From contig CAMBPS010000003.1 of assembly GCA_945869675.1 (NCBI GenBank), positions 1 to 64,000 of the forward strand: a stretch of DNA of 64,000 bases, in the 5' to 3' direction. Origin of the DNA: Prosthecobacter debontii. GTDB lineage: Bacteria; Verrucomicrobiota; Verrucomicrobiia; Verrucomicrobiales; Verrucomicrobiaceae. A program made the translations under genes and the position numbers. Positions 1,963 to 6,857 of the stretch are shown here, in pieces. Under the pieces are notes generated by a model. The model was given only the letters and a program-made list of their open reading frames with translations. It ran no database searches and was not told the origin of the DNA. Every line of letters begins with the position of its first letter. Position 1 is the stretch's first letter.

Positions 1963-3003
1963 ATGTCGCATCTTTTAGCCATCCTCCCAGCCACTGATCC
2001 TGCCCAGATTCTTCGTCTGCGTGATCGCCAATATGGGGCTGAACTGATCGCGGCGGCCCTGATGCATTTTGATTTTTTTTCCTGGCTTGGTCAAAACGAT
2101 GGCGTGACCGATAATGATGTTTGCAACCATTTTGACTTTGCCGCACGGCCTACGGATGTGCTGCTGACGCTTTGCCGAGCCAATGGCTTCCTTACGACGG
2201 ACTCTGCAGGCCGGCATCATCTAGCGCAGCTGGGTCGTGAGCATTTAGTCAAGGGATCGCCTTGGTATCTGGGTCCGTATTATGCGCCGATTCAGGATAC
2301 ACCGATTGTGCAGGGCTTCCTGAAAGTCTTGCGCACAGGCAAGCCTGCGAACTGGCAGGCTAAGACAGATGCGAAAGATTGGCATGAGTCCATGCTTGAT
2401 GAGGAGTTTGCCCGTAGTTTTACAGATCTCATGAACAGTCGTGGCATGATCTTTGGCCAGTATTTGGCTCAGGCGGTGACGCCACTGCTGACTGGGCGGA
2501 GGCATCTGCTGGATGTCGGCGGTGGCTCAGGAATCTACTCTGCCACGATGGTGGCAGCGCACTCGGATCTGAGTGCTACGGTGTTGGAACAGTCGCCTGT
2601 GGATGTTATTGTGCAGAAGGAGATCGCTAAGCATGGTCTCTCGGACCGTGTGCAAGTGGTCAGCGGAGACATGTTCAAGGTCGCCTGGCCAGAAACCGAT
2701 ATCGTGCTGCTTTCAAACGTTCTTCACGATTGGGATGTGCCAGAGATGCGTGCGCTTCTGGTGAAAGCTGCCGAGACGCTGCCTATGGGTGGTTTGCTCA
2801 TCATTCATGACGCTTTTATTAACGATGACAAAACGGGGCCGCATCCTGTGGCTGAATACTCGGCTCTGCTCATGAACATCACCCAGGGTAAGTGTTACTC
2901 GTCTGCTGAGTATGGTGCGGTTCTCCGTGAGCTTGGTTTTGCCGTTGGTCCGTATCAGGATACCGTCGCAGATCGTGGGTTCATGACGGCGGTGAAGTGT
3001 TGA
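1963..3003 (+). CDS. SAM-dependent O-methyltransferase (class I, acetylserotonin O-methyltransferase-like)
   Basis: MSHLLAILPATDPAQILRLRDRQYGAELIAAALMHFDFFSWLG...LLDVGGGSGIYSATMVAAHSDL...LSNVLHDWD...GGLLIIHDAFINDD; SAM motif DVGGGSG. Confidence 0.85.
   Translation: MSHLLAILPATDPAQILRLRDRQYGAELIAAALMHFDFFSWLGQNDGVTDNDVCNHFDFAARPTDVLLTLCRANGFLTTDSAGRHHLAQLGREHLVKGSPWYLGPYYAPIQDTPIVQGFLKVLRTGKPANWQAKTDAKDWHESMLDEEFARSFTDLMNSRGMIFGQYLAQAVTPLLTGRRHLLDVGGGSGIYSATMVAAHSDLSATVLEQSPVDVIVQKEIAKHGLSDRVQVVSGDMFKVAWPETDIVLLSNVLHDWDVPEMRALLVKAAETLPMGGLLIIHDAFINDDKTGPHPVAEYSALLMNITQGKCYSSAEYGAVLRELGFAVGPYQDTVADRGFMTAVKC
2878..3003 (+). repeat. Methyltransferase 3'-end repeat, copy 1 (native gene end)
   Basis: 126 bp ATCACCCAGGGTAAG...GGCGGTGAAGTGTTGA; matches copy 2 at 116/126 positions by eye; last 51 bp identical to copy 3. 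Confidence 0.95.
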
Positions 3004-3073
3004 AACTAACTGCGAGCCAAGAATAAACTCGGCGGAAGTTGACATGCGCTTGTCGGTGAAGAAAGTTTGCAGC

Positions 3074-3352
3074 ATGACTGCCGTGATGGACATCCCTGAT
3101 GAGCTTTACCAAAAAGTGACCGATCGAGTCGCTTTACTTGGGCGTCGAGTGCCTGAAGTCACCGCAGAACTCTACGAGCGTTGGCTTGGAGATAGCACCA
3201 CTGGTGGTGCGCCCATTTCTAGTCAGCCGTCTGGCGAGCAATGGCTTGAGGATTGGTTCTGTAGCGCAGATGAAGCAATCGCACATGCTGCCGCTGGACA
3301 ATCTGCGAGAGATCTTCTGCTGCAGGATCGCAATAGGCTGGAGAAGCTATGA
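3074..3352 (+). CDS. Putative VapB-type antitoxin
   Basis: Small ORF MTAVMDIPDELYQKVTDRVALLGRRVPEVTAELYERWLG... immediately upstream of and overlapping by 4 nt a PIN-domain ORF. Confidence 0.65.
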   Translation: MTAVMDIPDELYQKVTDRVALLGRRVPEVTAELYERWLGDSTTGGAPISSQPSGEQWLEDWFCSADEAIAHAAAGQSARDLLLQDRNRLEKL

Positions 3353-3768
3353 GACTGACTCTTGATGCGAGTGTGTGGATCGCTGCTGCAGACGCGACGG
3401 ATGTCTTTCATCAGCAGAGTCGCGACTTGTTGCGCAAGGTCGTTGCTGATGGCATCGCGGTAATCCAGCCCGCTTTTGGCAGAACCGAAGTCGCCTGTGC
3501 ACTGGCAAGGAGACTGCGTGATGGCCCGCTGGGAAGGGAGCTGACTGACTCACTGATGAATCGAGTCGTCACAGCGGAACTGCCCATGGATTCAGTATTT
3601 TTGAATACCGCTAAGACCCTCGGCACAAACCAGTTTCTTCGTGGAGCCGATGCCCTGTATGCCGTAGCTGCCCAGCAGAGTCAGAGTCTGCTGATCTCGT
3701 GGGACTATGAGCATCTGCAACGTGCAGGGGGTATCACGCCCACTGATTGGCTGGCAACGAACTTTTAA
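3349..3768 (+). CDS. PIN-domain toxin, VapC-like
   Basis: MRLTLDASVWIAAADATDVFHQQSRDLL...; N-terminal LDASVWIAA acidic PIN motif, C-terminal ADALYAVAAQQSQSLLISWDYEHLQRA. Confidence 0.8.
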   Translation: MRLTLDASVWIAAADATDVFHQQSRDLLRKVVADGIAVIQPAFGRTEVACALARRLRDGPLGRELTDSLMNRVVTAELPMDSVFLNTAKTLGTNQFLRGADALYAVAAQQSQSLLISWDYEHLQRAGGITPTDWLATNF

Positions 3769-3773
3769 AATGG

Positions 3774-3899
3774 ATCACTCAGGGTAAGTGTTACTCGTCT
3801 GCTGAGTATGGTGCGGTTCTCCGTGAGCTTGGTTTTGCTGTTGGCCCCTACCAGGATACGATTGCTGATCGTGGTTTCATGACGGCGGTGAAGTGTTGA
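3774..3899 (+). repeat. Methyltransferase 3'-end repeat, copy 2 (between TA pair and DGR)
   Basis: ATCACTCAGGGTAAG...GGCGGTGAAGTGTTGA; 126 bp, co-linear with 2878-3003, 10 differences, 9 at codon third positions. Confidence 0.95.
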
Positions 3900-3948
3900 A
3901 GATTTTGGCTTGATTTCTGCTTCGCTTAGATTGAGTAACTCCGCAATC

Positions 3949-4869
3949 ATGATAAATCCTCTTACCCTCCTCAGCGTATTGACATTCGCCGCCAGCGTTC
4001 ACGCTGCTGTCACCATTGATTACGTTACCGTGGGGGATGCAGGCAATGCGGCAGACACCACGGGCTACGGTGCGGTGGCTTATAATTTCCAGATCGGCAA
4101 GTTCGAGGTGACGAATGCGCAGTATGCGGAGTTTCTGAATAACAAAGCTGCTAGTGATCCGAATGGCCTCTTTAACGCGAGCATGGGCAGCAATGCACGG
4201 GGCGGCATCACTCAGAATGGCGTCAGTGGCAGCTTTACCTACACGGTGAAGGCAAACATGGGGGACAAGCCAGTGAATTATGTGAGCTTTTCAGACGCTA
4301 TGCGCTTTACGAACTGGATCAACAACGGCCAAGGCAGCAGTAGCACAGAGATTGGTGCCTATGATATGACGGTGGCTGCCACGACGGTCATCCACAGCAG
4401 CGCAGCTACAGTCTGGCTGCCCACGGAGAACGAGTGGTATAAAGCTGCCTATTACCAGCCCGTGGGTGCAGGTGGTGATAACGACAATTACTGGCTCTAC
4501 GCTACCCAGAGCAATACGATACCCACGGTGGGGACGGTTGATGCCAACGGCAACATCACCAACGATGGAGCAAACGTGGCGAACTATGGCAGCGGAGCGA
4601 TCTGGAATAGCCAGACGGGCAACGTGACGACCGTGGGCAGCGCCGGAGCCAGCAGCGATAGCTATTACGGAGCGTATGACCTGGGCGGGAATGTGTTTGA
4701 GTGGAACGAGGCCATCATCAGCAACGTTCGTGGTCTGCGCGGAGGTTCCTGGAACTCTCACCGAGAACGTCCCTGCGCGCCTCGAACCGCAACAACAGCA
4801 CGCCCACGCTCGAGAACAGCTCCATCGGGTTCCGTCTCGCAAGTTCTGTCCCGGAACCTTCACGCGTGA
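3949..4869 (+). CDS. DGR target protein: secreted FGE/SUMF1-like (C-type-lectin fold) protein; current reading frame is shifted inside the VR
   Basis: MINPLTLLSVLTFAASVHAAVTIDYVTVGDAGNAADTTGYGAVAYNFQIGKFEVTNAQYAEFLN...NYVSFSDAMRFTNWI...VWLPTENEWYKAAYY...GAYDLGGNVFEWNE...VRGLRGGSWN: canonical FGE-sulfatase core. The frame continues as SHRERPCAPRTATTARPRS...stop 4869. The alternative frame to 4934 gives LRASNRNNSTPTLENSSIGFRLASSVPEPSRVMLLLAGACSLLVRRRR. Confidence 0.9.
   Translation: MINPLTLLSVLTFAASVHAAVTIDYVTVGDAGNAADTTGYGAVAYNFQIGKFEVTNAQYAEFLNNKAASDPNGLFNASMGSNARGGITQNGVSGSFTYTVKANMGDKPVNYVSFSDAMRFTNWINNGQGSSSTEIGAYDMTVAATTVIHSSAATVWLPTENEWYKAAYYQPVGAGGDNDNYWLYATQSNTIPTVGTVDANGNITNDGANVANYGSGAIWNSQTGNVTTVGSAGASSDSYYGAYDLGGNVFEWNEAIISNVRGLRGGSWNSHRERPCAPRTATTARPRSRTAPSGSVSQVLSRNLHA
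4722..4843 (+). repeat. DGR variable repeat (VR)
   Basis: 122 nt aligned to TR 6487-6606 (120 nt). All substitutions are at TR A positions (e.g. GAT->GTT, AAC->AGC, AAC->CTC, AAC->TCC). Two AAC triplets are replaced by 4 nt (TCTC at 4756-4759; GTCC at 4769-4772). Confidence 0.97.
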
Positions 4870-4998
4870 TGCTATTGCTAGCCGGGGCGTGTAGTTTGCT
4901 CGTGAGACGCCGTCGGCTGCCCTTTGCCCTTTGAATCTTTGACCCTTTCTTCCGAATCAGAGAGGATGAGATAAGCGGGTAAGACATCAGGGAAAACC

Positions 4999-5025
4999 AG
5001 CGCCGCAGGCGCTCGGAATTTTTTT
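4999..5025 (+). terminator. Putative intrinsic terminator between DGR target and avd/RT
   Basis: Stem AGCGCC (4999-5004) / GGCGCT (5008-5013), loop GCA, followed by CGGAATTTTTTT. Confidence 0.6.
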
Positions 5026-5045
5026 CTAAATCTACCTTTGCCCTG

Positions 5046-5426
5046 ATGCCCACACCTCCCAAGGAACCGCCGATCCTGCTGGTAAAGTGGCATGACCTGA
5101 CTGGGTGGGTGCTGGACCGGGTGGAGGCCTTTCCGAAGAACCAGCGCTTCATCTTCGGTCAGCGGCTGGCCAACTACATGTTGGATGTGATGGAGCTGCT
5201 GGTGGAGGCCGCCTACACGCGGGAAAAGACCACCCTGCTGAACACGGCCAATCGGAAAATGGAAGTGCTGCGTTGGCTGCTGCGCATGAGCCATGAGAGG
5301 AAGCTGCTGACCCAGCGGCAGTATCTCCACGCCATTGGCCTACTGGTGGAGTGCGGGCGCATGTGCGGCGGCTGGCTGCGCAGTCGTGGCACGGATGAAG
5401 AGGGAGCACCCCCACCCAGCGCATGA
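5046..5426 (+). CDS. avd: Avd-like DGR accessory protein (four-helix bundle)
   Basis: MPTPPKEPPILLVKWHDLTGWVLDRVEAFPKNQRFIFGQRLANYMLDVMELLVEAAYTREKTTLLNTANRKMEVLRWLLRMSHERKLLTQRQYLHAIGLLVECGRMCGGWLRS; PKNQRF..GQR motif, size and position directly upstream of the RT; overlaps the RT start by 4 nt. Confidence 0.85.
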   Translation: MPTPPKEPPILLVKWHDLTGWVLDRVEAFPKNQRFIFGQRLANYMLDVMELLVEAAYTREKTTLLNTANRKMEVLRWLLRMSHERKLLTQRQYLHAIGLLVECGRMCGGWLRSRGTDEEGAPPPSA

Positions 5427-6463
5427 AGCGGCACAAGCATCTTTTTGAGCAGATGGCATCGCTAGAGAATCTGCTGGCCGCCAGTCACTCTGCCCTGCAC
5501 GGGAAGCGGATGAAACCAGCGGCAGCCCGCTACGTCCTTGAGATGGAGAAAGAAGTGATCGCGCTGCATGAGGAGCTGAACACTGGCCGCTACCGACACG
5601 GCCCCTACCACTATTTCATGATTCATGAACCAAAGCTGCGGCGTGTGGCCGCCGCGTGCTTCCGTGACCGCGTGGTTCATCACGCCCTGGTGCGGGTGCT
5701 GGAGCCGCTGTTTGAGCCGCGCTTCATTGAGGGCTCCTTCGCCTGCCGCCCAGGGAGGGGCACGCACGCAGGTATGAGACGTGCGGCGGAGTATGCTCAG
5801 CGCTTTCCGTATGCGCTGAAGTGTGATGTGAAGAAATACTTCCCCTCCATCCATCAGGGCATCCTCATGAAGCAGGTAAGCCGCGTGATAGGTGATGCGC
5901 GGGTGCTGGCCGTCGTGGGAGAAGTGCTCGGCTCTCACGCTGATAGCGTGCGGCGCGTGTGGCCGGAGGGCGGCGGCTTGTTTGACATGCAGGAGGAGCG
6001 CTACGGCCTGCCCATCGGCAACCTGACAAGCCAGTTCCTGGCCAATGTGTATCTGAACGAATTCGATCACTTCGTGAAGCATGAGCTGCGTGTGAAGGGC
6101 TATGTGCGGTATGTGGATGATTTTATCCTCTTCGGCCACGACCGCACCGCGCTCCGCGCCCAGGGCCGCGCCGTGCGTGAGAAGCTGCAAGAGCTGCGGC
6201 TCACCATCCACCCTGACAAATACCACCTGGGGCCGACCCGCTGCGGAGTGGACTTCACCGGCTTCATCGTCTTCGCCGATGGCCGCATCCGCCTGCGCAA
6301 AGCCAACGTGCGGCGCTTTACCCTGCGCTACCACCAGATGCTGCATGAGGCGAAGCGCCGGCGGCTGGACTGGCCGGAGGTGACGCAGCGGGTGCGCTCC
6401 TGGATCGCCCATGCCACGCACGCGCACAGTCACCGCTTGCGCGGGGACATCCTGCGGGGATGA
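5423..6463 (+). CDS. Diversity-generating retroelement reverse transcriptase
   Basis: RT motifs FRDRVVHHALVRVLEPLFEPRFIEGSFACRPGRGTHAG, LKCDVKKYFPSIHQ, GLPIGNLTSQFLANVYLNEFDHFVK (SQ in motif 4 as in DGR RTs), YVRYVDDFILFG catalytic YVDD, LHPDKYHLGPT-like segment. Confidence 0.96.
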   Translation: MKRHKHLFEQMASLENLLAASHSALHGKRMKPAAARYVLEMEKEVIALHEELNTGRYRHGPYHYFMIHEPKLRRVAAACFRDRVVHHALVRVLEPLFEPRFIEGSFACRPGRGTHAGMRRAAEYAQRFPYALKCDVKKYFPSIHQGILMKQVSRVIGDARVLAVVGEVLGSHADSVRRVWPEGGGLFDMQEERYGLPIGNLTSQFLANVYLNEFDHFVKHELRVKGYVRYVDDFILFGHDRTALRAQGRAVREKLQELRLTIHPDKYHLGPTRCGVDFTGFIVFADGRIRLRKANVRRFTLRYHQMLHEAKRRRLDWPEVTQRVRSWIAHATHAHSHRLRGDILRG

Positions 6464-6486
6464 TGGCGCATGGGGAGACGGGAAAA

Positions 6487-6606
6487 CAACGATCGTGGTC
6501 TGCGCGGAGGTTCCTGGAACAACACCGAGAACAACCTGCGCGCCTCGAACCGCAACAACAACACGCCCACGAACGAGAACAACAACATCGGGTTCCGTCT
6601 CGCAAG
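6487..6606 (+). repeat. DGR template repeat (TR)
   Basis: CAACGATCGTGGTCTGCGCGGAGGTTCCTGGAACAACACCGAGAACAACCTGCGCGCCTCGAACCGCAACAACAACACGCCCACGAACGAGAACAACAACATCGGGTTCCGTCTCGCAAG; 13 in-frame AAC codons; matches VR except at adenines and two insertions. Confidence 0.97.
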
Positions 6607-6748
6607 CCTCTGTGCAAGGACGGGGCCACCCGTCTGGAGGATCGGCCCGATCCGTAGCGGGAGTGATCCCGCCACGGCAGCGCCAGGACAGAGACTACCC
6701 GTTTCTCCAGCGTGCCGTCAGCCATGACGGCAGGCGAAGAACCAACAG

Positions 6749-6795
6749 GCCAGCCGTGGTGAGTAGCGTGGGCGAAAGGCGCGGCTGGCTTTTTT
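6749..6795 (+). terminator. Putative intrinsic terminator at the end of the DGR avd-RT-TR unit
   Basis: GCCAGCCG (6749-6756) pairs with CGGCTGGC (6782-6789), followed by TTTTTT (6790-6795); long 25-nt loop. Confidence 0.6.
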
Positions 6796-6806
6796 GGAGT
6801 GGCAGC

Positions 6807-6857
6807 TATCAGGATACCGTCGCAGATCGTGGGTTCATGACGGCGGTGAAGTGTTGA
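6807..6857 (+). repeat. Methyltransferase 3'-end repeat, copy 3 (51 bp)
   Basis: TATCAGGATACCGTCGCAGATCGTGGGTTCATGACGGCGGTGAAGTGTTGA, identical to 2953-3003. Confidence 0.97.

What the first reader, a model, noticed from the sequence alone, without database searches (positions are those of the whole stretch)
3949..6795. Complete diversity-generating retroelement (target-avd-RT-TR order) in a Verrucomicrobiota-like chromosome
Seen: an FGE-fold gene ending in a VR (4722-4843), an Avd-like ORF (5046-5426), an RT with GLPIGNLTSQ and YVDD motifs (5423-6463), and a TR (6487-6606) nearly identical to the VR. All substitutions between TR and VR fall on TR adenines: GAT->GTT, AAC->AGC twice, AAC->CTC, AAC->TCC, plus two altered AAC blocks. 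Established: adenine-directed mutagenic retrohoming defines DGRs, and FGE/C-type-lectin folds are common targets. The TR lies downstream of the RT rather than between avd and RT as in the Bordetella phage DGR. The TR reads in frame as NDRGLRGGSWNNTENNLRASNRNNNTPTNENNNIGFRLAS, with 13 AAC codons.
Basis: partly seen in the sequence, partly recalled or inferred. Interest (0 to 1): 0.88.

Follow-up and report, generated by a model that had tools for sequence, protein, structure and literature searches.

The report
Mutation-generating retroelement with frameshifted target
This is a genuine diversity-generating retroelement, a known kind of bacterial machine that rewrites a surface protein with random mutations, but its last rewrite also inserted two single bases that knock the target protein out of frame, and the whole unit sits in a recent insertion at the end of a methyltransferase gene.

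Summary
The DGR is real. Target (FGE/C-type-lectin domain plus PEP-CTERM anchor), Avd, RT, TR and VR are at the stated coordinates. All 11 substitutions lie on TR adenines, and the RT falls in the DGR clade (100/100). (1) The VR is 122 nt against 120 nt for the TR. Two of its "altered AAC blocks" are one-base insertions (AAC>TCTC, AAC>GTCC), so the assembled target is out of frame and loses the conserved GFR end and the PEP-CTERM anchor. The closest relative (G032, RT 91-92% identical) has an independent 1-nt deletion entering the same frame. In a census of 83 TR/VR pairs, 5 carry frame-breaking indels inside the diversified core. (2) Target body, Avd and RT are under purifying selection, and each VR carries its own TR's lineage-specific bases, so the frameshifts look recent and rewritable. 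(3) The DGR, with a toxin-antitoxin-like pair, is a 3.85-kb insertion at the 3' end of an O-methyltransferase gene, flanked by a 51-bp identical repeat. Sister genomes have the empty site; G032 carries the same DGR next to metK. TR-after-RT order is ordinary here (51 of 78). New member of a known kind.

The parts
1966..3003 (+). O-methyltransferase gene whose 3' end is the insertion site
   Evidence: PF00891 E 1.2e-28; present in 46 of 48 genomes of the genus at E <= 1e-40
2878..3004 (+). first copy of the methyltransferase 3' end (gene's own)
   Evidence: 127-nt match to 3774-3900 (92%); last 51 nt identical to those ending at 6857
3044..3768 (+). toxin-antitoxin-like pair: 102-aa protein without a family match (3044-3352) and PIN-domain protein (3349-3768)
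   Evidence: PF01850 E 1.9e-7 for the second ORF; none for the first
3774..3900 (+). second, diverged copy of the methyltransferase 3' end
   Evidence: 86% over the last 63 nt
3949..4869 (+). DGR target as assembled: signal-peptide-like N terminus, FGE-sulfatase domain, out-of-frame tail
   Evidence: PF03781 E 1.3e-20; tail RPRSRTAPSGSVSQVLSRNLHA
4722..4843 (+). variable region (VR), 122 nt
   Evidence: 11 substitutions, all at TR adenines, plus two +1 insertions
4756..4759 (+). first frame-breaking insertion, TR AAC > VR TCTC
   Evidence: alignment, sequence
4769..4772 (+). second frame-breaking insertion, TR AAC > VR GTCC
   Evidence: alignment, sequence
4845..4934 (+). PEP-CTERM anchor, in the TR frame but not in the assembled target frame
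   Evidence: TIGR02595 26.9 bits, cut-off 16; exosortase genes elsewhere in the genome
5046..5426 (+). Avd accessory protein
   Evidence: NF033474 equivalog 99.3 bits, cut-off 80; PF22296; PHROG 'Avd protein of DGR'
5423..6463 (+). DGR reverse transcriptase, overlapping avd by 4 nt
   Evidence: PF00078, phrog_1423 E 6.8e-110, SQ motif, DGR clade 100/100
6487..6606 (+). template repeat (TR), 120 nt
6607..6802 (+). structured tail after the TR, ending in a long hairpin with T run; single copy in the genome
   Evidence: fold z -4.36, 0 of 200 shuffles as stable; single copy; 3' 79 nt also in G023
6800..6857 (+). third copy of the methyltransferase 3' end, closing the insertion
   Evidence: 51 of 51 nt identical to the first copy

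Best explanation
A chromosomal diversity-generating retroelement of the Avd/RT type. The RNA carrying the TR is copied by the RT-Avd complex, which misincorporates opposite template adenines; the mutated cDNA replaces the VR at the end of an exported FGE/C-type-lectin protein that is normally held at the cell surface by a PEP-CTERM anchor (mechanism inferred from the family; anatomy and A-specific changes shown). In the assembled genome the most recent rewrite also inserted one base at each of two AAC blocks, most simply explained by the RT losing register at adenines and failing to restore it (inferred). That VR is therefore an off-frame, probably non-functional product which the next retrohoming from the intact TR could overwrite (inferred). 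The unit lies, with a toxin-antitoxin-like pair, in an insertion at the 3' end of a methyltransferase gene (shown).
For: Avd and RT families, RT clade and motif; A-only substitutions here and in G032. Each VR carries its own TR's bases at the three non-A sites where the two TRs differ, so retrohoming occurred after the lineages split. Purifying selection on RT (omega 0.14), Avd (0.08) and FGE body (0.10). Frame-breaking indels: window +1,+1; G032 -1; three others among 83 VRs. Both window insertions can be read as an added C beside the template A's, the product expected if the published slippage model fails to restore register (PMC12875486). Empty sites in G039, G037 and G035, 51-bp identical flanking repeat, and the same DGR after metK in G032.
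Against: One consensus sequence per genome; no reads, so the share of cells with the frameshift is unknown. Indel placement within AAC runs is ambiguous, and one of the five indel-bearing VRs (G063) aligns best with the gap at a T. Activity was not measured. The toxin-antitoxin reading rests on one weak PIN hit. No integrase was recognised in the insertion, so how it moved is unknown.
Confidence: 0.85

Rival explanations
1. Assembly artefact: reads from a hypervariable VR and its TR were merged into a consensus with false indels, and the target is in frame in all cells.
For: The genome is a draft of 207 contigs; related contig G016:C244 ends inside the target before the VR, as expected where assembly struggles.
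Against: Short-read assemblies rarely create single-base indels (general knowledge); five genomes show them, four best aligned at adenines; 78 of 83 VRs show no frame-breaking indel in the core.
Confidence: 0.2
2. Decaying element: target and DGR are becoming pseudogenes and the frameshift is ordinary mutation.
For: An Avd fragment and a DGR-tail fragment at the same locus in G009 and G023 suggest that such elements do decay.
Against: RT, Avd and FGE body under strong purifying selection; no substitutions at non-A sites of the VR; both insertions sit at AAC blocks.
Confidence: 0.1
3. Reversible switch: the RT lineage of the window and G032 is slippage-prone, and frame-breaking rewrites turn the anchored receptor off until the next rewrite.
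For: Both members of this RT lineage carry independent indels, 2 of 2 against 3 of 81 elsewhere (Fisher p 0.003, post hoc); both enter the same frame and lose the anchor.
Against: Chosen after seeing the window; the independent support is one genome; off-frame products may be simple errors.
Confidence: 0.1

Closest known systems
Bordetella phage BPP-1 DGR (mtd-avd-TR-brt)
   Same: Avd and RT families; A-specific mutagenesis; C-type-lectin-type target. The best PDB sequence match of the RT is 8ub7, a 328-aa 'Reverse transcriptase', E 4e-48, which I take from memory to be BPP-1 bRT.
   Different: TR lies after the RT; target is an exported, PEP-CTERM-type cellular protein, not a phage tail protein; VR carries +1 insertions.
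Cellular DGRs of Verrucomicrobiota and other phyla (surveyed in PMC8144416, PMC10907252)
   Same: Target-avd-RT-TR order (TR after RT in 51 of 78 here); FGE/C-type-lectin targets are described.
   Different: Nearest non-sister RTs found are 58-59% identical; frame-breaking VR; insertion at a methyltransferase 3' end.
DGRs carried by mobile elements (PMC3521204)
   Same: Horizontal spread of DGR cassettes on other elements is established.
   Different: No transposase or integrase recognised between the flanking repeats; the repeat is the host gene's 3' end.

Membership tests
Diversity-generating retroelement | RT of the DGR clade with the SQ motif | tested here: met
   GLPIGNLTSQF, YVDD; 30 DGR-locus RTs form one side of a branch, 100/100
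Diversity-generating retroelement | TR/VR pair with substitutions confined to TR adenines | tested here: met
   11 of 11; sister 18 of 18
Diversity-generating retroelement | VR inside the 3' end of a protein-coding target with C-type-lectin/FGE or Ig-like fold | tested here: met
   PF03781 E 1.3e-20; fold itself not modelled; frame broken within the VR
Diversity-generating retroelement | Avd or equivalent accessory protein | tested here: met
   NF033474 above cut-off
Diversity-generating retroelement | Active mutagenic retrohoming | not testable with these tools
   indirect only: each VR follows its own TR at lineage-specific non-A sites
PEP-CTERM/exosortase substrate | C-terminal PEP-CTERM motif and exosortase in the genome | tested here: inconclusive
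   motif TIGR02595 in the TR frame and two EpsH-family genes, but out of frame in the assembled target
Autonomous integrative element | integrase or transposase between the repeats | tested here: inconclusive
   ORFs of the insert listed; those scanned gave PIN, FGE, Avd and RT, no integrase or transposase; not every small ORF was scanned

The most novel reading that the evidence does not exclude
In this lineage mutagenic retrohoming regularly makes single-base indels at adenine blocks, so the DGR both diversifies its receptor and switches it off and on reversibly: off-frame rewrites drop the PEP-CTERM anchor and the next rewrite from the intact TR restores it.
Probability: 0.1. Interest if true: 0.75.

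Novelty: new member of a known kind. Interest (0 to 1): 0.42.

Why it matters
DGRs are well catalogued, so finding one is not news. The useful part is the natural record of single-base, frame-breaking rewrites at adenine blocks. A recent study says slippage at these positions must be corrected to avoid insertions and cites earlier indels in multiples of three (PMC12875486); these VRs look like uncorrected products, and the census gives a first estimate (5 of 83). The empty sites and the second location in G032 also document movement of a compact DGR unit within one genus.

Tried and rejected
Remote VRs or a second DGR in the genome: none. An RNA family in the tail: no relevant Rfam match. Tail as a dispersed cassette end in this genome: rejected, single copy. 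Integron attC idea: dropped after inspecting the repeat ends; no formal test. RNA constraint as the cause of low silent divergence in the RT 3' half: not supported, since pair L062/L063 shows no such dip; recent exchange or conversion is likelier. G034 methyltransferase duplication: a longer partial gene copy with an unrelated gene between, not counted. Selection for one off-frame: 5 of 5 enter the same frame, too few to tell (two-sided 0.06, by hand). Close relatives of the RT on plasmids and phages: none above 42% identity in the rows listed. No structure was predicted.

Full report
Observation. Avd matches NF033474 above its cut-off and PF22296; the RT matches PF00078 and phrog_1423; the target matches PF03781. 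The TR (6487-6606) and VR (4722-4843) differ by 11 substitutions, all at TR adenines, where adenine is 36 of 120 bases (chance 1.8e-6). The RT carries the SQ motif that PMC3521204 describes for DGR RTs, and in a tree of 41 RTs the 30 from loci with A-biased repeats separate from 11 without that motif with support 100/100.

What was missed. The VR is two bases longer than the TR. The alignment places one extra base at each of two AAC blocks: AAC>TCTC (4756-4759) and AAC>GTCC (4769-4772). The upstream frame then runs to a stop at 4869 with the tail RPRSRTAPSGSVSQVLSRNLHA. The TR frame instead reads GFRLASSVPEPSRVMLLLAGACSLLVRRRRLPFAL, a PEP-CTERM motif (TIGR02595, 26.9 bits, cut-off 16), and the genome has two EpsH-family exosortase genes. 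The assembled target has thus lost both the conserved GFR end of the domain and its anchor.

Independent case. The nearest relative, G032 (L033, titled Verrucomicrobiaceae; RT 91-92% identical), has 18 of 18 substitutions at adenines and a one-base deletion in an AAC block, entering the same frame and losing its own PEP-CTERM motif. At the three non-adenine sites where the two TRs differ, each VR matches its own TR, so both VRs were rewritten after the lineages separated and the indels are separate events. Between the two, omega is 0.14 for RT, 0.08 for Avd and 0.10 for the FGE body, which argues against long-standing decay.

Census. A script looked for repeat pairs of 80-400 nt with at least 70% of substitutions on one copy's adenines in the DGR loci fetched; it found 83 pairs in 72 loci. 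Because A-bias was a selection criterion, the pooled 1361 of 1515 substitutions at A is descriptive only. The loci were chosen by similarity to this RT and are not a random sample. Sorting indels by eye to those inside the diversified core (a script flag alone also catches alignment ends), five VRs are frame-breaking: window, G032, G063 (L064), G092 (L068) and G248 (L180); three carry in-frame +3 insertions (L151, L170, L171); L179 has an 8-base insertion near the 3' end that I left out as unclear. Translation confirmed the five breaks. In four of the five the indels sit at adenines; in G063 the gap aligns best at a T. PMC12875486 proposes slippage at adenines and says register must be restored to avoid insertions, citing earlier indels in multiples of three. 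I read these one-base events as uncorrected slippage; that is inference. The clustering in the window-G032 pair (2 of 2 against 3 of 81, p 0.003) was noticed after the fact, and only G032 is an independent observation.

Surroundings. In G039 and G037 the methyltransferase gene runs straight into the AraC-type gene that follows the DGR here; G035 is also empty. The window has 3,854 extra bases, holding a toxin-antitoxin-like pair and the DGR, with three copies of the methyltransferase 3' end: 2878-3004, 3774-3900 and 6800-6857. The last 51 nt of the outer two are identical. At the same site G023 has another small insert ending in the 79-nt DGR tail plus a copy of the gene end, and G009 has an Avd fragment. 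G032 carries the DGR after metK, in an insert whose far end repeats about 37 bp of the metK downstream region, and which is absent from G035. G016 has a related target at a third place, at a contig end. Silent divergence between window and G032 falls from metK level in the FGE body (pS 0.58, metK 0.55) to 0.02-0.12 in the RT 3' part, which fits recent exchange. No recombinase was recognised, so the mode of movement is open.

Ordinary features. TR downstream of RT is the commonest order here (51 of 78). The structured tail (z -4.36) may belong to the DGR RNA; its role was not tested.

Verdict. A genuine DGR, a new member of a known kind. The frame-breaking rewrites and the clean insertion site raise its interest moderately; reads across the VR would decide whether the frameshift is real and how common it is.

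Noticed in passing
window 2878-3004, 3774-3900, 6800-6857: Three copies of a methyltransferase 3' end bracket two inserts; related inserts lie at the same site in G023 and G009.
   Followed up: partly
L108 4927-6006: G023 insert at the same site: small ORFs, the longer without a Pfam match, ending in the 79-nt tail shared with the DGR.
   Followed up: partly
L033 4440-4500 and L230 6050-6190: Short tandem repeats containing CTGCTGGCA lie directly upstream of the DGR target in G032 and G016 but not in the window.
   Followed up: no
window 5960-6802 against L033: RT 3' part, TR and tail are far less diverged than the target body, suggesting a mosaic element.
   Followed up: partly
L064, L068, L180, L061, window: All five frame-breaking VRs enter the same off-frame; too few to judge.
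   Followed up: no
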